Virus record (IMG/VR): IMGVR_UViG_3300045922_000730
Location: 1 to 34,742 of that record
DNA length: 34,742 nucleotides
From: a virus
Strand: one strand, 5' to 3'
Below the pieces are notes generated by a model. That model made no database searches. It was not told the origin of the DNA and saw only the letters and a list, made by a program, of their open reading frames with translations. Below are positions 144 through 9,702 of the stretch, one piece after another (within the stretch, counting starts at the first letter, position 1; each line of letters opens with the position of its first letter). The translations under genes were made by a program, and so were the position numbers.

Positions 144-258
144 TGTACGTTGCCTGACCAATGCGAAGCGAGGGAAGGCAACAGCCCGCTGGTGTCAGCA
201 GCCGAAAACGGTGGAGCAAATCAAAGAATTTCTGGAGAACCTGAAACATGCTGCTTAG
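37..258 (+). CDS. Doubtful small ORF overlapping the dnaB end
   Basis: This is a 73-codon frame starting at TTG 37. Its first third lies inside dnaB in another frame. Only the last part, after the dnaB stop, looks protein-like (PKTVEQIKEFLENLKHAA, a short amphipathic helix), and no ATG/GTG start or ribosome site fits that part. The frame ends 11 bases inside the methyltransferase gene, which would fit translational coupling. It may be a real small peptide with an unrecognised start, a remnant of a longer gene, or chance. No function is assigned. Confidence 0.2.
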   Translation: MLKSQSSSSATGQPESPAFCLSKSFPVFATLNRLANVRCLTNAKRGKATARWCQQPKTVEQIKEFLENLKHAA

Positions 259-1486
259 AACGCAATTAGAACTAGCTTTTCACCGATACGCTGACGTGTT
301 CCCAATGATGGACGCAGCAGAGTTTTCATCGCTCAAGGAAAGCATCAGCAAGGGCGGGCTAAAGGAACAAATCTGGCTGTATGAGGGCAAGATTCTAGAC
401 GGCAGAAACCGATATTTAGCCTGCCTAGAGGTTGGGATAGAGCCAGAGTTCAGAGAGTTTCGAGGCACTGATGAGCAGGCACTAGAAGCGGTCATCGCCT
501 GGAACCTGGAGCGGCGGCATTTGTCGAGCTGGCAAAAAGCAGCGATCGCCACCGAAGCCGACGGACTGTTTGAGGAACTGACAGAGCAGGCAAAGGCAAG
601 GCAGCTATCGACGCTGAAGCAAAACCAGCCCAAAGAGGAGTGCGGCAATGTGGCGATCGCGCCCCTGCCTCCTACGGCTCCCGTTGTGCAAAATTTTGCA
701 CAACGGGTTGATACTCGACCCGAAGAAAGTAAAACCCGCGCAAAACTTGCCCAAGCATTCGGCACCAACCGTCAGTACGTCCAAGACGCACTGCGAATCA
801 AAGCCGAAGCCCCCGAAGTCCTGGAAGCCTCAAAACAGGGTGTACTTTCCGGGCCGCAGGCAAAGTCCATCGCTCAACTTCAGCCAGAGCAGCGACAAGA
901 GGCGATCCAGGTCTTGCAAGAAACCCCCAAATCAAAGCGCAGCGCAGCGCTCAACGCCCTGCTGAGCAGCGAGTCAAACGAGTGGTACACACCCGCTCAG
1001 TACGTCGAAGCAGCGCGGCGGGTGATGGGGCAAATTGACCTAGATCCAGCCTCCAACGCTGTAGCCAATGAGGTTGTAAGGGCAGAGGTATTTTACGACA
1101 TCGAAGACAACGGCTTATCACAGCCCTGGAGTGGGTGCGTATTCCTGAATCCTCCCTATGGACAGGACAACGACAAAAACGCCAGTAATCAGGCGATTTG
1201 GGCAAGACGCCTGATTGACGAATACGAATCTGGCAGCGTCACGCAAGCAATTTTGCTTGTCAATGCTGCCACTTCAGCAAAATGGTTTGAACCGCTGTTT
1301 GAACACGTCATTTGCTTCACCAATCACCGCATCAAGTTCTATCGCCCTGGCGCTGATGCAAACTCGCCCACCCAGAGCAACGCCATTGTCTACATGGGCG
1401 ATCGCGTTGACAGTTTCGCTGAGGAGTTCAAAGAGTTCGGAGCGGTCGTTAAAAAACTAGTGGAGCACTCCAGTGAATCAATTTGA
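248..1486 (+). CDS. ParB-like domain fused to phage N6-adenine DNA methyltransferase
   Basis: This 412-aa protein has two recognisable parts. Residues about 10-115 resemble the ParB/Srx N-terminal domain (ILDGRNRYLAC at 49-59 matches the family's DGRHR-type box), followed by a KorB-like helix-turn-helix near 161-185. Residues about 243-400 match the phage Dam-type N6-adenine methyltransferase family: EWYTP at 245-249, LDPAS at 265-269 and the catalytic NPPYG at 301-305. It would transfer methyl groups from S-adenosylmethionine to adenine in DNA; the ParB-like part may give DNA binding. The ATG at 248 overlaps the doubtful upstream ORF, and the 3' end overlaps the nuclease-like gene by 14 bases. 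The target site is not known; GATC, the core of HIP1, is a reasonable candidate but is inference. Confidence 0.85.
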   Translation: MLLRTQLELAFHRYADVFPMMDAAEFSSLKESISKGGLKEQIWLYEGKILDGRNRYLACLEVGIEPEFREFRGTDEQALEAVIAWNLERRHLSSWQKAAIATEADGLFEELTEQAKARQLSTLKQNQPKEECGNVAIAPLPPTAPVVQNFAQRVDTRPEESKTRAKLAQAFGTNRQYVQDALRIKAEAPEVLEASKQGVLSGPQAKSIAQLQPEQRQEAIQVLQETPKSKRSAALNALLSSESNEWYTPAQYVEAARRVMGQIDLDPASNAVANEVVRAEVFYDIEDNGLSQPWSGCVFLNPPYGQDNDKNASNQAIWARRLIDEYESGSVTQAILLVNAATSAKWFEPLFEHVICFTNHRIKFYRPGADANSPTQSNAIVYMGDRVDSFAEEFKEFGAVVKKLVEHSSESI

Positions 1487-1996: not shown

Positions 1997-2173
1997 ATGC
2001 AGATTCCCGTCAATGACATCCGAAACGCGATCGCCGTTATCCGCCAAAAGTACCCCGGCACCGAAGTAAGGCAAGCGTTCGACGACTTTGAAAGACTCCT
2101 AGAACCTGCCTGCACCCAGCCCCAAGATCCCCGCCCCGTAAAGCCCCTGACGATCAGCCTTGGAGAAAAGTAG
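1997..2173 (+). CDS. Hypothetical 58-aa protein
   Basis: ATG 1997 opens a 58-residue frame ending at TAG 2171-2173. The N-terminal 40 residues (MQIPVNDIRNAIAVIRQKYP, then GTEVRQAFDDFERLLEP) are predicted helical and soluble; the tail is proline-rich. The gene lies 56 bases after the nuclease-like gene on the same strand and just before a terminator-like hairpin, so it is probably the last gene of the operon. No clear Shine-Dalgarno sequence is seen before the ATG. The function is unknown. Confidence 0.5.
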   Translation: MQIPVNDIRNAIAVIRQKYPGTEVRQAFDDFERLLEPACTQPQDPRPVKPLTISLGEK

Positions 2174-2181
2174 TCAACTAC

Positions 2182-2202
2182 CCCCACCTGAACGAGGTGG
2201 GG
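2182..2202 (+). terminator. Stem-loop after the methyltransferase operon
   Basis: A perfect 8-bp stem, CCCCACCT / AGGTGGGG, encloses a 5-base loop 8 bases after the stop of the 58-aa gene. It lacks a T-run, so it may be a weak terminator or an mRNA 3' stabiliser. It lies between converging genes. Confidence 0.45.
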
Positions 2203-2211
2203 CCAGCGGGC

Positions 2212-2237
2212 CAGCACCGCCAGACTAGGTGGTGCTG
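2212..2237 (-). terminator. Stem-loop at the end of the minus-strand gene
   Basis: CAGCACCGCC pairs with GGTGGTGCTG (10 bp with one G·T) around the 6-base loop AGACTA. The stem spans the stop codon and the last codons of the minus-strand gene. With the hairpin at 2182-2202 it forms a two-hairpin barrier between converging transcripts. No T-run is present. Confidence 0.35.
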
Positions 2238-2578
2238 ATGTTTTCGTCTGGGTCGAGTCCCCAGGCTAGGCAAAACGCGCCCGCCGCTGCGTCCAATTCC
2301 AAAAACTTGCCGTAGCCCTTTTCTTCCAGCATTTCGTAAATCACCTGTCTGGGCGATCGCTGAAGCAGCTTGGCTCTGATTCTTACGGCTGCTGCCAACG
2401 CCTGGATATTCTCAGGCACTCCCGCCCTGTCCATCAAAAACTGCTCCAGCGTGCGCGTGGTTGAGGCTTCGCGCACGAATTCGCCTTGAGCCGCATAGAA
2501 AATCTCGGTTTCGATAGGCAGTCGAACCGGAATAGGGCGATCGCGGCGATTGATTGATTTGGGACTCACTTGATCCAT
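2225..2578 (-). CDS. Hypothetical 117-aa protein, divergent from the HTH gene
   Basis: This soluble protein starts MDQVSPKSINRRDRPIPVRL and continues with a predicted helical middle (residues 40-95). The RPIPVRLPIETE opening resembles the strand-plus-helix start of small ribbon-helix-helix regulators, but the rest is not typical and the family is not recognised. The ATG (2576-2578) lies inside a CCATTTGG box that recurs twice upstream, which suggests the gene is controlled by binding at its own start. It is transcribed away from the HTH gene at 2764, and the shared upstream region holds both palindromes. A regulatory or partition role is possible but unproven. Confidence 0.65.
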   Translation of the reverse strand: MDQVSPKSINRRDRPIPVRLPIETEIFYAAQGEFVREASTTRTLEQFLMDRAGVPENIQALAAAVRIRAKLLQRSPRQVIYEMLEEKGYGKFLELDAAAGAFCLAWGLDPDENISTT

Positions 2579-2625
2579 TTGGTAACTAACCAGATTTTAG
2601 AGTGTTAGCTCCTATCGTATCTTTT

Positions 2626-2666
2626 GATTTCCATTTGGTAGCCATTTAGGTTGCCAAATGGAAATC
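2626..2666. promoter_or_regulatory. Palindrome with 13-bp arms, likely operator
   Basis: GATTTCCATTTGG (2626-2638) is matched perfectly in inverted orientation by CCAAATGGAAATC (2654-2666), with a 15-base spacer that itself pairs partly. A third copy of the core, CCATTTGG, lies at 2574-2581 over the start codon of the minus-strand gene. The plus-strand sequence TTGCCA (2651-2656), 17 bases before TAATCT (2674-2679), is a weak promoter candidate towards the HTH gene. Spacing and symmetry fit a dimeric repressor site. Confidence 0.6.
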
Positions 2667-2681
2667 ATTCGGTTAATCTCT

Positions 2682-2760
2682 ATTTCAAGGGCGTTTCAAA
2701 ATGGTTTCAAACCCGTTTCGCAGAAACGCCCTTGAAACCATTTTGAAACGGTTTTGAAAC
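2682..2760. repeat. 11-bp-phased array of four plus four inverted half-sites
   Basis: ATTTCAA at 2682, GTTTCAA at 2693 and 2704, and GTTTC at 2715 are spaced exactly 11 bp apart. The inverted forms GAAAC (2723-2727) and TTGAAAC at 2732, 2743 and 2754 follow with the same 11-bp period, mirrored about base 2721. The block 2693-2710 is the exact reverse complement of 2732-2749 (18 bp). A second inverted pair, 15 bp long (2683-2697 and 2723-2737), is nested off-centre. An 11-bp period places every site on the same face of the helix, as in cooperative operators, plasmid centromeres and iterons. Confidence 0.85.
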
Positions 2761-2763
2761 GGA

Positions 2764-3024
2764 ATGCTGGCAGAACAGCCCAAACCTGTGTTTTTCAAAG
2801 ACCTGGCGCGGCGCTTCGGCGTTACCGAGCGCACGCTCTACAACTGGTTCGCGGCAGCGGGCCCGTTGGGGTGGCTCGACCCCACTGGCGATCGCCAGTG
2901 GTTCGACGAGGAGGATGCTTTGTGGGCTGCTGACTGGCTTGCTTTCAGGACTCAGGTTTCGTCTAAAGCGCAGCTCTACATTGCTGCGGTTCAACGCAAC
3001 AACTACCAAAGGATTTTTGTATGA
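2764..3024 (+). CDS. Small HTH DNA-binding protein
   Basis: This 86-aa protein has a helix-turn-helix at about residues 11-30 (FKDLARRFGVTERTLYNWF), followed by a wing-like GWLDPTGDRQWF and an EEDALWAADWLAF helix, an arrangement like excisionase/MerR-type small DNA binders. Its ATG lies only 3 bases after the last half-site of the phased array, with no Shine-Dalgarno sequence, so binding there would block both transcription and translation initiation. It overlaps the next gene by 4 bases (ATGA). The likely role is regulator or partition/origin-binding protein of the array; this is inference from position. Confidence 0.7.
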   Translation: MLAEQPKPVFFKDLARRFGVTERTLYNWFAAAGPLGWLDPTGDRQWFDEEDALWAADWLAFRTQVSSKAQLYIAAVQRNNYQRIFV

Positions 3025-3422
3025 CACTTACCGAGGAACAGAAACAAGCGCTCAACTCCGCCGCCAATTGCAGAACCCGGAAGAAAAGCACTAAGCAGGC
3101 GCGTCAATCTGCTGCAAGCAGCGCAAGTGGAACCGCAAGTGACGTGAAGGGGGCTGACCTGGTTGACTTGGCGGCGATCGCCCAACAGTTCAACCAGGTC
3201 GGGCAAACCGTTGGACTGACAGCGATCAACTCAATGCATCAAGGTATTGCCCAGGTGTTTGAGTCCTACCGCCAGCACGGCGGCGTCCAGTTCTTTGTGC
3301 AGCAGGTGGGCGATCGCGCTGTAGCGCTGCCGGAAGCTGCACCTAACCTGTTGGGAGCAGCAGAGCCATCGACAAAGGATGAGGCGATCGCCGCCATTGA
3401 AGCCCTGTTTGTGGAGGAGTGA
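3021..3422 (+). CDS. Hypothetical 133-aa protein with basic N-terminus
   Basis: The ATG at 3021 overlaps the HTH gene stop (ATGA). Residues 1-40 are basic and low in complexity (RTRKKSTKQARQSAASSASG), and residues 45-105 form predicted helices with many Gln, Val and Ala. No membrane segment or known domain is seen. It lies between the HTH gene and the membrane-protein genes of the same operon and ends in GTGGAGGAGTGATGG, which supplies the ribosome site for the next gene. The function is unknown; a soluble partner of the downstream membrane complex is possible. Confidence 0.65.
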   Translation: MTLTEEQKQALNSAANCRTRKKSTKQARQSAASSASGTASDVKGADLVDLAAIAQQFNQVGQTVGLTAINSMHQGIAQVFESYRQHGGVQFFVQQVGDRAVALPEAAPNLLGAAEPSTKDEAIAAIEALFVEE

Positions 3423-3901
3423 TGGAATCACTGCTAGATCCTCGCAAGGCAGCGGGCAACAGCCTGGTGATCAGCCTCCTGTTAGTTGTTTGTGGTGCCG
3501 CAGTTTCGGTGACGCGCCTACAGACCGCCACAGCGGAGTTCGGGCGCGACAAGATCGCCAGCTACCGCGCCGAACGTTGCCGCATCGTTGGCAACGGCGA
3601 AAAGCTGGAGCTGGGAGCTTTCTACTTTCAGCCGATCCCTGGCGGTGGCGAGTGGCTGTCGGAGGGCGAATATCTGTGCGACCTGTTTGGCAATAGCGGA
3701 CGGGTTGAGCGCAATGGCTCGTTGCAGCACTTCGTAAACTCGCCGCCGGAAGAGGTTAACAAAGTGCTGATGAAGCGCCTGGAGAATCCAGCCCTGCCCG
3801 ACAGCAACCCGCAGTTTCGCCCACTACGCGATCGCACTCGCCCGCCCGTCTACCTGGAAGAGGCGATCGCGCCTGATAGCCAAGTTTTTCAACAGCCCTA
3901 G
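3422..3901 (+). CDS. Membrane-anchored protein, unknown function
   Basis: This 159-aa protein has one predicted transmembrane helix near residues 13-30 (NSLVISLLLVVCGAAVSV) and a large soluble domain of about 125 residues. The soluble part has a CRIVGNGEKLELGAFYFQ segment and a second Cys (EYLCDLFGN), which could form a disulfide outside the membrane. ATG 3422 is chosen because GGAGG (3413-3417) lies 4 bases upstream and TGATG couples it to the previous gene; a GTG at 3419 is an alternative. Its place beside a polytopic membrane protein and a DNA-pump-like ATPase suggests part of a membrane assembly. Confidence 0.7.
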   Translation: MESLLDPRKAAGNSLVISLLLVVCGAAVSVTRLQTATAEFGRDKIASYRAERCRIVGNGEKLELGAFYFQPIPGGGEWLSEGEYLCDLFGNSGRVERNGSLQHFVNSPPEEVNKVLMKRLENPALPDSNPQFRPLRDRTRPPVYLEEAIAPDSQVFQQP

Positions 3902-3911
3902 AGAGGTTCTT

Positions 3912-4634
3912 ATGTCCTTGCCCTTTGAAGCAACGCAGCAGCCCGGTGGACGCCCGTCCGAAGCTGCCCGCCCAACTGGCCACCCTACAGCAGGCAAAGC
4001 AAAGCCGCGGGGTGGCAGCGCTATTTACAATTTCGCCCAAGTGATTGAGAACGTTTTCAGCCACCGCGGGCTGTTTGTCTTGGGGGTGGTCGTCACCCTC
4101 GTCTGCTTCTACGCAAACGCAAGCTTTTGGGTAAACGTGTTCGCCTCGGTTGGCTACGCAGGGGCGATCGCGCTATTTCTAGGCGTCTTGGCAAGCTTTG
4201 GTACTTCAATCTTCCAGGTGTTGCCAGTGGTGTACCAACACAGCCGCCGCCTCTCGTTGATGCGCCTTTTCAGCGCAGGTATTAAGCCCGATCGCCTGCC
4301 TGCGATCAATGACAAGGTTGTGCCGGACGCAGAAAGGATGCTGACCCAGTACAAAGAGAGCGATCGCGCTCGGCGCAAGTTTTTCTCAATGATGCGCTGG
4401 GTCGCCTACGGAGTAGAAACCCTGATGGGGGTAATTTTCCTGGGCAGCGTCGGCACAGGCTTTGTCGGCATTGTGCAGCTCCTCATGTTCGTCGTTTCAA
4501 TCGTTGGAGTGGAGTGGGGTGTCTCCCTAGCGCTTCGGGCTAGCCAAGACGAACTGCCGCCGAACGTGCAGCAGCAATTTGACAGCCTGATTGAGAAATC
4601 GAATCAGCAGCTTAGCCTGAAGGAGATCCGCTAG
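3912..4634 (+). CDS. Polytopic membrane protein, unknown function
   Basis: This 240-aa protein starts at ATG 3912 with GAGAGG just upstream. After a Pro/Gly-rich basic N-terminus, two hydrophobic helices occupy about residues 52-100 (GLFVLGVVVTLVCFYA; GAIALFLGVLASFG) and two more about 160-205 (GVETLMGVIFLGS; LLMFVVSIVGVEWG). A charged loop lies between the pairs (KPDRLPAINDKVVPDAERM). The gene stop overlaps the GTG of the ATPase gene (CTAGTG), so the two are coupled. It may be the membrane partner of that ATPase. Confidence 0.75.
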   Translation: MSLPFEATQQPGGRPSEAARPTGHPTAGKAKPRGGSAIYNFAQVIENVFSHRGLFVLGVVVTLVCFYANASFWVNVFASVGYAGAIALFLGVLASFGTSIFQVLPVVYQHSRRLSLMRLFSAGIKPDRLPAINDKVVPDAERMLTQYKESDRARRKFFSMMRWVAYGVETLMGVIFLGSVGTGFVGIVQLLMFVVSIVGVEWGVSLALRASQDELPPNVQQQFDSLIEKSNQQLSLKEIR

Positions 4635-6157
4635 TGACTGCGATCGCCCCATTCCAGCCCCAGCGGACTGAAACCAACGGATACCTAGACCCGGATCAGA
4701 CCATCATTGATTACTGCGTGCGAGAGCTGGGCTGCACGTTTCAAGAGGTAATTCAGGACGACCCAAACCGGATGCTCAGGGCATGGCAGCGGCTACGCAA
4801 AACTGGGCAGCAAGCGGCGATCGCCGGAGTCGGGCTGGGTGGGGTGGGGGTGGCGTTAGGCGTGTTCGCTGGCGCAACACCCCTGATGATCGCTGGGGTA
4901 AGCGTCGTTGCCCTCAACGGCTGGCTGTGCAAGGTTCATGCAGACGCTCAAGAGGCGATCGCAATTGAATCCGACGTGCTGAACCAGTGCCGACCCGCCC
5001 TTGACCTGCTTGCCAAGCTGGAGCAGCAAGGCGTCAACGCATCGCACCTGGTCAGCATCTACAACCGATTGGTGCAGTTTGCCAGCACCAATCGCCTTGC
5101 AGCCGACGACCCCAAGCAGTTAGCCGACTTTTTCAAAATGAGCCTTAAGCAGGCTCAAATGCTTAAGGCTCTAGAGCCGGAGCCGGAGCCGGAGCCGCCG
5201 CAAGCGACTGAGTTTGCGGTCACGGTTCAGCTTCCGCAACTGCAAGCCCCCGTCTGTCCCCAATCGCCCCCATCTACCTCTGCCGAGACTAGGCAAGAGA
5301 CGCCAGACAACAACTGGCAACCTCCGGCAGTGCCGACTGACGACATTGCTAGGGATCTGGCAAGCAATCTCAGATCAGCCCTAGTCGTAGGGCAGCCTGG
5401 TGCAGGAAAGGGAATCGTCGTGGCACAGGCAATCCGAGAGATCAAACGGCAGCGTTCAGACTTGCAGATCTGGGTGATCGACCCCAAAAATGAGCCCTCT
5501 GAGGCGCACTACTGGGAGCCTGCCGACAAGGTGCTACGCCGCACAATCGATCCGTTCACCTCGCCCAATGAGATGGAACTGATCGTTCAGGACTTTGAGG
5601 AATTTATCAGCCGATTCAGTGCGATAAAAGCCCCCAAATTGCTGATCGTTGATGAGGTTCTGACGATCATGAACAAGGCTAAACAGTGGTATCAAAACTT
5701 CCTAGCCCCTGGCTGTCATGCGCTGTGCAGCACTGGGCGGGCTGCTGAATCTTACGTGTGGCTGATCTCCCAAAGCCCCAATGCCACCGACTTCGGCATG
5801 TCGGGCGGAACCCGCAACGTATACCGCCGCTTATTGCTGGTCAGTGCCGACAACGTCGGGCTACTGGCTAATGGTTCAACCTTTTTCTCTGGCTACCCTG
5901 AGCAGAAGCTTTTCTCTGCGACTGGGCGCGTTTTCTACGATTCGGTCGCCAACCGCTGGGGCGCAACTCCGGTTTACGATCTTTGCTCCGTCACCAGCTT
6001 TGCCGACTGGCTCAAGACCAATCAGCCCGCAACGGTTGAGCAGGCGGTCGGCTTCTTTGGCGGCGATCGCGCTCAATTCAAGCAAGAGGCGATCGCCCTA
6101 GTGGAGAGCGGGGCGATCGCCTTCGACGCAAGCACTCAAGTTTTTTCTACACCATAG
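4634..6157 (+). CDS. Membrane-anchored P-loop ATPase (HerA/FtsK/TraD-like)
   Basis: This 507-aa protein starts at GTG 4634. The N-terminal part has two glycine-rich hydrophobic helices (about 60-97), followed by a helical region (105-180), a PEPEPEPEPP linker encoded by four GAGCCG repeats (5174-5197), and an ATPase domain from about 245. The Walker A motif is GQPGAGKG (253-260), Walker B is LLIVDE (336-341), and WLISQSP (376-382) resembles the sensor segment of DNA-pump ATPases. WVIDPKNEP (280-288) is typical of the FtsK/HerA/VirB4/TraD and Zot groups. The likely role is DNA or protein movement at the membrane; which of these groups it belongs to is not resolved. The C-terminal 60 residues look like a small winged-helix-type domain. 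Confidence 0.8.
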   Translation: MTAIAPFQPQRTETNGYLDPDQTIIDYCVRELGCTFQEVIQDDPNRMLRAWQRLRKTGQQAAIAGVGLGGVGVALGVFAGATPLMIAGVSVVALNGWLCKVHADAQEAIAIESDVLNQCRPALDLLAKLEQQGVNASHLVSIYNRLVQFASTNRLAADDPKQLADFFKMSLKQAQMLKALEPEPEPEPPQATEFAVTVQLPQLQAPVCPQSPPSTSAETRQETPDNNWQPPAVPTDDIARDLASNLRSALVVGQPGAGKGIVVAQAIREIKRQRSDLQIWVIDPKNEPSEAHYWEPADKVLRRTIDPFTSPNEMELIVQDFEEFISRFSAIKAPKLLIVDEVLTIMNKAKQWYQNFLAPGCHALCSTGRAAESYVWLISQSPNATDFGMSGGTRNVYRRLLLVSADNVGLLANGSTFFSGYPEQKLFSATGRVFYDSVANRWGATPVYDLCSVTSFADWLKTNQPATVEQAVGFFGGDRAQFKQEAIALVESGAIAFDASTQVFSTP

Positions 6158-6167
6158 GAGCAAAACA

Positions 6168-6422
6168 ATGGAAGAAGAATATCAATACTGGGAAGAAGAT
6201 GGGCAGTATCAAGGTGAGCAATATTACGAAGAGCCTCAAGGCTATTCAGAGGACTGGGTAGACGCAGACAGCGACGGCTGGGGGATCACCCCCGGCATCG
6301 GACTCTTTGGCGGCTGCGCCTGGAGCCATACGACGGTCTACGACTCGGATGGGAATGAAGTGCATCAAGAGAGCAGCCGGACGCCGTTCTTTGGGTTAGG
6401 AGGATTTTTGGGGCTGTGGTGA
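6168..6422 (+). CDS. Acidic tyrosine-rich small protein
   Basis: ATG 6168 follows the ribosome site AGGAG (6155-6159) at an 8-base distance. The first 37 of its 84 residues are almost entirely Glu, Asp, Tyr, Gln and Gly (EEEYQYWEEDGQYQGEQYY), so highly acidic and probably disordered. The C-terminal half is Gly/Phe/Trp-rich (GIGLFGGCAW and TPFFGLGGFLGLW), which may associate with the membrane. It overlaps the GIY-YIG gene by 7 bases. The function is unknown; an acidic N-terminus beside DNA enzymes could mimic DNA, but this is speculation. Confidence 0.65.
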   Translation: MEEEYQYWEEDGQYQGEQYYEEPQGYSEDWVDADSDGWGITPGIGLFGGCAWSHTTVYDSDGNEVHQESSRTPFFGLGGFLGLW

Positions 6423-8018: not shown

Positions 8019-8210
8019 ATGCTATCACTGTTAATTTCAATCTTGCTGTCCGTTCAGTCCGTAGACACCCTTGTGTCCACGGCGTCCGAAGATCCCTGCT
8101 GCGTCGCTGGTGGCCCAGCCAGCGGCCAAGGCAGTGGCACTCGCTTCCGAGACTCAGCCAAGCCACCGCAGCATCGAGGCAGCGGGCGCGGCGAAGAGCA
8201 GGGGGCGTAA
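8019..8210 (+). CDS. Possible small protein with hydrophobic N-terminus
   Basis: ATG 8019 has a good ribosome site (GGAGG 8005-8009, 9 bases upstream) and encodes 63 residues beginning MLSLLISILLSVQS, a short hydrophobic stretch. The rest (CCVAGGPASGQGSG onward) is low complexity and rich in Gly, Ser and Arg. The next frame over the same bases is also open and gives more ordinary protein sequence (PAASLVAQPAAKAVALASET, about 8095-8154) before joining the long gene. A frameshift may therefore separate a true start here from that second frame. Real but short, or the broken start of a small gene; the evidence is divided. Confidence 0.4.
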   Translation: MLSLLISILLSVQSVDTLVSTASEDPCCVAGGPASGQGSGTRFRDSAKPPQHRGSGRGEEQGA

Positions 8211-8280
8211 GCCCTGGCCCGCCTTCACCGGGCTTTGTAGACGCGATCGCTGTGAAGGGGCGATCGCAACCCAAAAAACA

Positions 8281-9702
8281 ATGCTACGCAAGAAATCTAT
8301 TGAGTCCCAGCCCGCCCGCCTTGAAGAGATCGGGCGTCTGTTCAAAGGTTCTCCTAAGCGCACTGTTGAGAGCCGGAAGCAACCTGGCAAAATGATTGAG
8401 GTCGCAGGCTCAGAGCTGGATCACTATCGCTTTGAGCCTGCGGACTGGACGAAGGCGATCGCCCTCAACGGTGGCACGCTCTATGACCAGCTTGCCCAGC
8501 GCTGGCATCAGTGCCGGGAATTGTTTAGCGACTGGCGATCGGTGCAGGTGATGCTGCCGTATCCGACCCTTGAGCAGAACTATTTCTACGAAAACGCCAA
8601 GTTTGACGGGGCGCGGCGCTGCGTTCGTCGGTGCGACGGCGAAATCTGCACTCGGCACGAAGAAAAGTACGGCGATCCTAAAACGGGCAAGCAGGTGAGC
8701 CGGATCGCCACCAACCCGATCCCCTGTGCGGCCGGCCCAGATGACGAAAAGTGTCCCGCTGGCTGTGTGCAGCGGGGACAGCTCAAGATGCTTGTCCCGG
8801 CGCTGGAGTATCCCGGCGTGGTCATCCTGACGACCCACTCAAAGCGCGACATCGTGGCGCTGCTGGGCAATCTGAAGGCGTTTGGCGACCACGACCTAAG
8901 CCGCATTCCGCTGCGGCTGCTGCGAGTTGAGGAGCGGTGCGATCGCCCCAACAGCGACGGCTCACTCTCCAGCGGAACTAAATGGTTCTGCCGTTTACAG
9001 GTTGATCCGCTCTATGGCGGCCGGGCGCTGGCGGAGCAGCATCGACTTGCGCTCACGGCGGGCGGCGAGCCGGAACCGCTTCGGCTGGCAACTTCCAGCA
9101 CCGTGGAACCTGCGCCGCTGAAACCGTTTCGACAGCAGCAGGAGTGGCTAGACTTTCAGCAGGCGATCGCCAGTGCGATTCGCTCTGCCAAGCCCGCTGC
9201 GGTCGATTCCGCCTGTGAGATTGCGCTGCTGCTGGTGGAAAACGGCATCCTGCCCGACCATGCCCGCAAGAGCGTCGCCACTGAGCGCGATCGCGCAATG
9301 GATGCGATCGCCTCGCTCGGCATATCTGCGCCCGTCCCAACCGAGCAACCCACCAAGCCGACCCGTAAAAAGGTTGAGAAAGCGCAGTACATCGCGGCGG
9401 ATGGGTTGCCGCAGCGAGTTGAGGCGTTGTGCAGCCTGCTGAAGTGCCAGCCGACCGACTTGGAGGCGATCGCCGTTTCAAAGACCGGGCGATCGCTTTT
9501 GGAACTGTCGAGTTCCGATTTCCGCAAGGTGCGATCGCTTGCGTTCCTGGATTGGGCGACGATTGCACGGGGCGATCGCGGTCTGCCAGCTATCAACGTG
9601 GCAAGTGAGTGGACACGGATGGCTGAGGAACTGGGTGATTTGTCGGGGCTGAGCGACAGCGAACTGTTTCAGCGGTGGGGCGATCGCATTTTGAGTGTTT
9701 AG
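8281..9702 (+). CDS. Recombination directionality factor-like (Gp3-like) zinc protein
   Basis: From ATG 8281 the product is 473 aa; the frame stays open back to TTG 8071, and the start is unsure because neither has a ribosome site. Residues 80-170 hold Cys114, Cys118, Cys123, Cys149, Cys158 and Cys162, including RRCDG, consistent with zinc binding. A conserved-looking core follows: LKMLVPALEYPGVVILTTHS (168-187) and LSRIPLRLLRVEE. The RCDG box, the Cys cluster and the leucine-proline core recall the Gp3-like recombination directionality factors of phages with serine integrases, which switch integrase from integration to excision. The C-terminal 220 residues are a separate helical region. The identity is from memory of the family and is moderate. 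Confidence 0.6.
   Translation: MLRKKSIESQPARLEEIGRLFKGSPKRTVESRKQPGKMIEVAGSELDHYRFEPADWTKAIALNGGTLYDQLAQRWHQCRELFSDWRSVQVMLPYPTLEQNYFYENAKFDGARRCVRRCDGEICTRHEEKYGDPKTGKQVSRIATNPIPCAAGPDDEKCPAGCVQRGQLKMLVPALEYPGVVILTTHSKRDIVALLGNLKAFGDHDLSRIPLRLLRVEERCDRPNSDGSLSSGTKWFCRLQVDPLYGGRALAEQHRLALTAGGEPEPLRLATSSTVEPAPLKPFRQQQEWLDFQQAIASAIRSAKPAAVDSACEIALLLVENGILPDHARKSVATERDRAMDAIASLGISAPVPTEQPTKPTRKKVEKAQYIAADGLPQRVEALCSLLKCQPTDLEAIAVSKTGRSLLELSSSDFRKVRSLAFLDWATIARGDRGLPAINVASEWTRMAEELGDLSGLSDSELFQRWGDRILSV

What the first reader, a model, noticed from the sequence alone, without database searches (positions are those of the whole stretch)
2682..2760. Mirror-symmetric array of eight half-sites at an exact 11-bp period
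Four GTTTCAA-type sites and four TTGAAAC sites are placed symmetrically about base 2721, each 11 bp from its neighbour, with an 18-bp perfect inverted block inside and a second, off-centre 15-bp inverted pair nested in it. The array ends 3 bp before the start of a small HTH gene, which has no ribosome site. This is more ordered than a normal operator and looks like a centromere, an iteron origin or a cooperative filament-forming site. No such arrangement is named by the ordinary annotation.
Basis: partly seen in the sequence, partly recalled or inferred. Interest (0 to 1): 0.75.

Follow-up and report, generated by a model that had tools for sequence, protein, structure and literature searches.

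The report
Helically phased operator of cyanophage cassette
Just in front of a small DNA-binding-protein gene, a cyanobacterial phage carries eight copies of a short DNA word, one per turn of the helix and arranged in two facing rows; this is most likely where that protein assembles along the DNA to control, and perhaps handle, an exchangeable gene cassette that cyanobacterial plasmids also carry.

Summary
The array is real: GTTTC half-sites start at 2682 (as ATTTC), 2693, 2704 and 2715, mirrored by GAAAC ending at 2727, 2738, 2749 and 2760, exactly 11 bp apart, centre 2721. It is the only such array in the window, and shuffles never give one. It is not a plain palindrome: units read A-B-C-centre-A'-B'-C', each inverted in place with a constant 57-bp span. 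The window is a cyanobacterial tailed-phage record. A sister phage (structural genes mostly 90-100% identical) has window 2173-6165 replaced by a different version of the same operon (small HTH, membrane proteins, ATPase). There the leader gene has its own array (TGGAAC/TGAAAC, 11-10-11 bp). A third element shares the divergent 117-aa gene at 67% identity and has GGGTGAA sites at 12 bp in the same place. Related operons lie on filamentous-cyanobacterial plasmids. Best explanation: a cooperative operator for the leader winged-HTH protein, probably one monomer per helical turn in two convergent runs, as in BldC, Xis and RdfS. An additional centromere-like role is possible. An iteron origin is unlikely, because the sister phage's DnaD-like initiator gene carries its own iterons elsewhere. 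Binding is untested, and the HTH assignment is sub-threshold.

The parts
2682..2714 (+). Left arm: three 11-bp units ATTTCAAGGGC (A), GTTTCAAAATG (B), GTTTCAAACCC (C)
2715..2727 (.). Centre of the array, GTTTCGCAGAAAC (fourth half-site of each arm)
2728..2760 (-). Right arm: three inverted 11-bp units, A' B' C' (bottom strand GTTTCAAGGGC, GTTTCAAAATG, GTTTCAAAACC)
   Evidence: inverted pairs
2764..3024 (+). 86-aa leader protein, putative winged HTH, the most likely protein to bind the array
   Evidence: sub-threshold HTH matches in Pfam; phrog_66 excisionase/regulator E=0.0013; low-confidence AF2 model with helix-turn-helix plus hairpin wing
2623..2669 (.). Separate imperfect palindrome TGATTTCCATTTGGTAGCC-N5-GGTTGCCAAATGGAAATCA, shared with L016; probable operator of the 117-aa protein overlapping the promoter
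   Evidence: I3, I8; blastn alignment with L016 covers 2391-2668 and stops before the array; alignment
2225..2578 (-). Divergent 117-aa protein, 67% identical in L016; N-terminus resembles a ribbon-helix-helix by eye only
   Evidence: AF2 model does not resolve the N-terminus
3021..3422 (+). 133-aa protein, second gene of the operon; occupies the slot of the C-terminal part of the fused leader proteins of relatives
3419..3901 (+). 160-aa protein with an N-terminal hydrophobic segment
   Evidence: by inspection
3912..4634 (+). 240-aa multi-pass membrane protein
   Evidence: by inspection
4634..6157 (+). 507-aa P-loop ATPase with an N-terminal hydrophobic stretch; homologues on 19 plasmid records of filamentous cyanobacteria
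   Evidence: HerA/VirB4/TraB resemblance only at sub-threshold level
2173..6165 (.). Exchangeable cassette: replaced as a block by a different version of the operon in sister phage G003

Best explanation
The array is the operator of the cassette's leader protein, the 86-aa winged-HTH protein encoded 3 bp downstream. The protein most likely binds one GTTTC(AA) half-site per helical turn on one face of the DNA and assembles cooperatively head to tail, giving two runs of four that converge on base 2721. This would cover the start of the operon and make its expression switch-like (autoregulation). Shown: the array, its phasing and unit order, its uniqueness, the cassette exchange, and the recurrence of phased arrays with changed motifs before leader genes of sister elements. 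Inferred: binding by this protein, head-to-tail cooperativity, repression, and the transcription start near 2682 (from alignment of a -10-like segment with L016). The same nucleoprotein structure could also act as a centromere-like or docking site for the membrane proteins and ATPase of the operon.
For: Array verified and far beyond chance. Sister phage G003 shares structural genes mostly at 90-100% identity but has window 2173-6165 replaced; its own leader HTH gene is preceded by TGGAAC, TGAAAC, TGGAAC, TGGAAC at 11-10-11 bp plus an inverted GTTCC (no shuffle of 200 scores as well). That array is one of only two of its score in 43 kb. In element L016/G001 the corresponding intergenic has GGGTGAA sites at 12-12 bp and TGGTTA sites at 11-12-11, and in 29.8 kb the strongest phased runs fall in this intergenic and the start of its leader gene. 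A homologous leader on a Leptolyngbya plasmid (L097) has GTGAAC, GTGACC, GAGAAC at 11-11 upstream (p about 0.03). Leaders of G003, L017 and L097 are homologues (45% and 30%). The region conserved with L016 covers the 117-aa gene and the TTGGTAAC palindrome and stops before the array, which assigns the palindrome to the 117-aa protein and the array to the leader. The model has winged-HTH topology, and its best though non-significant structural matches are RacA, MerR proteins, BldC and pSK1 Par. Published winged-HTH proteins assemble this way on DNA: BldC (PMC5859096), RdfS, itself first gene of a conjugation operon, and lambda Xis as cited there (PMC11963761).
Against: No binding data. The HTH assignment rests on sub-threshold profile hits and a single-sequence model with mean pLDDT 55. 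The 86-aa protein has no BLAST-detectable homologue in phages or plasmids, and its relation to the other leader proteins is by position and style only (23-25% identity in a poor alignment). Site orientation differs between elements (convergent here, direct plus a diverging site in G003). The phased-array detector was chosen after seeing the sequences. BldC sites are 9 bp, not 11.
Confidence: 0.6

Rival explanations
1. Centromere (partition site): the array is primarily a segregation or DNA-docking site, with the leader protein as adaptor to the cassette's membrane proteins and ATPase or to a host partner; autoregulation is secondary, as in plasmid par systems.
For: Operons of this type lie on plasmids of filamentous cyanobacteria. 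One begins with an actin-like ParM homologue (L030, ALP_N E=6e-9); another has a ParG gene divergent from it (L021). Weak structural matches include pSK1 Par and RacA, wHTH plus coiled-coil segregation proteins (PMC11500499).
Against: The window phage shows no ParA or plasmid-maintenance gene among the proteins scanned. L016 and L097 have their own ParA genes besides. No evidence that this phage is kept as a plasmid. The array lies at the presumed transcription start, as an operator would.
Confidence: 0.2
2. RNA element: the array is transcribed and forms a 5' UTR hairpin controlling translation of the leader gene.
For: Folds at -48.5 kcal/mol as RNA, z = -7.2. Lies directly before an ATG without ribosome site.
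Against: Hairpin formation needs neither 11-bp phasing nor a common half-site. The long hairpin is not conserved: G003 has four direct sites and one inverted, L016 mostly direct sites. Both strands fold strongly. Rfam has only sub-threshold microRNA matches, as for any long hairpin.
Confidence: 0.07
3. The array is the binding site of the divergent 117-aa protein.
For: It lies in the shared intergenic; the 117-aa N-terminus looks like a ribbon-helix-helix.
Against: The 117-aa protein is 67% conserved in L016 together with the TTGGTAAC palindrome, but GTTTCAA sites are absent from that intergenic and conservation stops at 2668. G003 lacks the 117-aa protein yet has a TGRAAC array.
Confidence: 0.07
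4. Iteron-type replication origin.
For: Short repeats at helical spacing next to a small DNA-binding protein.
Against: The sister phage has a DnaD-like helicase loader/initiator gene with GTCACG repeats inside it at 11, 10, 10 bp, outside this cassette. No clear GC-skew switch at the array. No Rep protein identified in the cassette.
Confidence: 0.04
5. Attachment or excision arm sites for a recombinase, with the 86-aa protein as excisionase.
For: phrog_66 (excisionase and transcriptional regulator) E=0.0013; a 543-aa protein at 8071-9702 matches the Gp3-like recombination-directionality-factor family.
Against: No integrase was found among the window proteins scanned or seen in the G003 regions read; the array abuts the operon rather than an integrase gene.
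Confidence: 0.02

Closest known systems
BldC of Streptomyces (single-domain MerR-like regulator)
   Same: Small wHTH-only protein; variable number of direct repeats; cooperative head-to-tail binding over promoters (PMC5859096)
   Different: BldC repeats are 9 bp and direct only; here 11 bp in two convergent runs. Sequence homology is not shown, and BldC is only a weak fold match
Winged-HTH excisionases: lambda Xis, RdfS of ICEMlSym R7A
   Same: Small wHTH forming filaments on DNA; RdfS is the first gene of an operon of transfer genes (PMC11963761)
   Different: No integrase nearby; RdfS has no apparent consensus motif, whereas this array has a very regular one
pSK1 Par and RacA (wHTH plus coiled-coil segregation proteins)
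   Same: wHTH DNA-binding domain; leaders of relatives G003, L017 and L097 are a small N-terminal HTH-like part plus a long Q/E/A-rich part, on plasmids and a phage
   Different: In the window the HTH is separate from the second protein; homology and segregation function are unproven
Cyanobacterial plasmid operon of small proteins, membrane proteins and unclassified P-loop ATPase
   Same: ATPase homologous at about 30% over its core, similar gene order
   Different: No statistically significant phased array was found upstream of the first gene in the Calothrix, Tolypothrix PCC 7712 and Scytonema plasmids

Membership tests
BldC-type / Xis-type cooperative wHTH operator | Several short half-sites in one orientation at about one helical turn, or contiguous | tested here: met
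   Four per arm at exactly 11 bp
BldC-type / Xis-type cooperative wHTH operator | Cognate protein is a small wHTH | tested here: inconclusive
   Sub-threshold Pfam and PHROG hits, low-confidence model with wHTH topology, non-significant fold matches
BldC-type / Xis-type cooperative wHTH operator | Array accompanies its cognate gene and its motif changes with it | tested here: met
   G003, L016 and, weakly, L097 have their own arrays at the leader gene; few relatives were available
BldC-type / Xis-type cooperative wHTH operator | Cooperative head-to-tail binding | not testable with these tools
   Needs EMSA, footprinting or a structure
Plasmid centromere | Partition NTPase or cytomotive protein partner in the same locus | tested here: not met
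   The cassette's only NTPase is an unclassified HerA/VirB4-like P-loop ATPase; ParM-like protein only in relatives
Plasmid centromere | Confers stability and incompatibility | not testable with these tools
   Needs a plasmid assay
Iteron replication origin | Replication initiator gene next to the iterons | tested here: not met
   None in the cassette; the sister phage has a DnaD-like initiator with its own repeats elsewhere
CRISPR repeat array | Repeats of 25-40 bp separated by unique spacers | tested here: not met
   11-bp tandem units without spacers, although GTTTCAA/TTGAAAC resembles ends of some CRISPR repeats

The most novel reading that the evidence does not exclude
The array is the centromere or docking site of an undescribed DNA-handling cassette: a wHTH filament on a helically phased array, linked through membrane proteins to a HerA/FtsK/TraB-like ATPase, and exchanged as a block between cyanobacterial phages and plasmids. 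The A-B-C-centre-A'-B'-C' order would reflect pairing of specific units across a fixed 57-bp distance.
Probability: 0.2. Interest if true: 0.75.

Novelty: new variant of a known kind. Interest (0 to 1): 0.45.

Why it matters
It links a visibly ordered DNA site to an unclassified operon that recurs on plasmids of filamentous cyanobacteria and is exchanged as a block between nearly identical phages. If the leader protein assembles on the array as proposed, phage and plasmid versions with different motifs would be a ready natural set for studying how wHTH filaments choose motif, phase and orientation, and for finding out what the cassette does.

Tried and rejected
Simple mirror palindrome: rejected, the units are in parallel order A-B-C / A'-B'-C'. 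Genome-collection hits to the 86-aa protein in Actinobacteria (L008-L015): rejected, on inspection the match falls in long proteins that look like isochorismate synthases sharing a GPLGWLD stretch. Viral hits L002-L005 match mainly the TERTLYNW segment and were not used. Pattern hit L006 falls inside a structural protein gene and has no array. The exact DNA array has no blastn match in plasmids or phages. An alignment search with the 117-aa protein gave only L016 again, and an alignment search with leader proteins gave only G003 again. ATPase scan of viral contigs: none. CRISPR, Rfam RNA and sigma-70 promoter consensus: no support. A first fixed-period scan missed mixed 10/11-bp arrays and was replaced. 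In Calothrix and Tolypothrix plasmids TACGG words at 10, 11, 11, 10 bp were seen by eye, but the test gave p about 0.08, so they are not claimed.

Full report
Observation. GTTTC-type half-sites start at 2682 (ATTTC), 2693, 2704 and 2715. Their reverse complements end at 2727, 2738, 2749 and 2760. Each step is 11 bp and the centre is 2721. GTTTCAA-N4-GTTTCAA occurs three times and never in shuffles. No other comparable phased run exists in the 34.7-kb window. The six flanking units are A B C on the left and A' B' C' on the right, each inverted in place, so every pair spans 57 bp and the pair centres are staggered by 11 bp (2710, 2721, 2732). A true palindrome would read C' B' A'. Eleven of 12 variable bases agree within pairs, P about 2e-5 even if any pairing is allowed. 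I have no firm explanation for this order.

Context. The window is a virus record rich in GCGATCGC words, with terminase, portal-like, major head and tail genes, so a tailed phage of cyanobacteria. The array lies between a divergent 117-aa gene and an operon of five genes: 86-aa putative HTH, 133 aa, 160 aa, 240-aa membrane protein and 507-aa P-loop ATPase. The ATPase has homologues on 19 plasmid records of filamentous cyanobacteria at about 30% identity. It belongs to no curated family above threshold; HerA, VirB4 and TraB resemblances are sub-threshold.

Relatives. Record G003 (43 kb) is a sister phage: most structural and late genes are 90-100% identical in protein sequence. Similarity breaks at window 2172 and resumes at about 6140-6168. 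In between G003 carries a different 6.2-kb block ending in the same kind of operon: a 197-aa leader with an N-terminal HTH-like part, a membrane protein similar to one in the plasmid operons, a second membrane protein and an ATPase. Upstream of its leader are TGGAAC, TGAAAC, TGGAAC, TGGAAC at 11, 10, 11 bp and an inverted GTTCC. No shuffle of 200 scored as well, and in the 43-kb genome only one other run scores as high. That other run is a set of GTCACG repeats inside a DnaD-like helicase-loader gene, the likely origin of this phage group and a reason not to call the window's array an origin. Element L016/G001 shares the 117-aa protein at 67%. The intergenic similarity covers the promoter region and a TTGGTAAC palindrome and stops at window 2668, before the array. 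In its place L016 has GGGTGAA sites at 12-bp spacing before a different leader, and in 29.8 kb the strongest phased runs lie in this intergenic and the start of the leader gene. Leptolyngbya plasmids carry homologues of the G003 leader (45% and 30%) with GTGAAC-type sites upstream, weakly significant in one (L097, p about 0.03) and not in the other.

Interpretation. Motif and leader protein change together while helical phasing and position persist. That is what an operator read by the leader protein would do, and not what an RNA hairpin or an origin requires. The 86-aa protein has weak HTH and excisionase-type profile matches. Its model, of low confidence, has the winged-HTH order helix-helix-hairpin-helix. 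The best fold matches, none significant, are RacA, MerR proteins, BldC and pSK1 Par. BldC binds direct repeats as head-to-tail multimers (PMC5859096). RdfS and lambda Xis form comparable filaments, and RdfS heads a transfer operon (PMC11963761). By alignment with L016 a -10-like segment (TAATCT at 2675-2680 here; TGCTATCCT in L016) places the transcription start near the first array base; this is inference, as the consensus scan found no sigma-70 promoter. The array would then cover the first 79 transcribed bases, and its occupation should block the operon.

What remains open. A centromere-like function is compatible with everything here, since such sites often double as operators; relatives on plasmids include an actin-like ParM homologue and a ParG neighbour. 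The RNA reading is kept at low probability because the hairpin is very stable (-48.5 kcal/mol, z -7.2) and abuts a start codon without ribosome site. Limits: three phage-type elements and two plasmids is a small comparison; the detector was tuned after seeing the arrays; the window's leader has no detectable homologue; host genomes could not be searched.

Noticed in passing
window 2173-6165 versus L087 10558-16772 (minus strand): Nearly identical phages differ by clean exchange of one gene block between a stop codon and a start codon; the G003 leader is closest to a Leptolyngbya plasmid protein.
   Followed up: yes
L088 541-577 (G003 40541-40577): GTCACG repeats at 11, 10, 10 bp inside a DnaD-like helicase-loader gene; candidate replication origin of this phage group.
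   Followed up: partly
window 2574-2668; L016 intergenic: TTGGTAAC-type palindromes shared by two elements together with the 117-aa gene; in L016 they are themselves spaced 11-12-11 bp.
   Followed up: partly
L033 2816-2857 (inside the L016/G001 leader gene): TTCACCC-type words at 12-bp spacing continue inside the leader coding sequence of L016, where they also encode an SP-rich stretch.
   Followed up: no
L007 7770-7960: Unrelated AT-rich virus contig with dense GTTTCA/TGAAAC sites at 11-12 bp, including a four-site core matching the window's pattern exactly; host and function unknown.
   Followed up: no
L030 1391-2398; L028 178-921: Actin-like (ParM/ALP) gene on one small cyanobacterial plasmid (L030), and by eye a similar partial one on another (L028), at the start of the ATPase-bearing operon.
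   Followed up: partly
window 8071-9702: 543-aa protein matching the Gp3-like recombination directionality factor family (E=1e-10); no integrase was found among the window proteins scanned.
   Followed up: no
window 248-1486: Fusion of a ParB-type HTH region with a Dam-like adenine methyltransferase domain.
   Followed up: no
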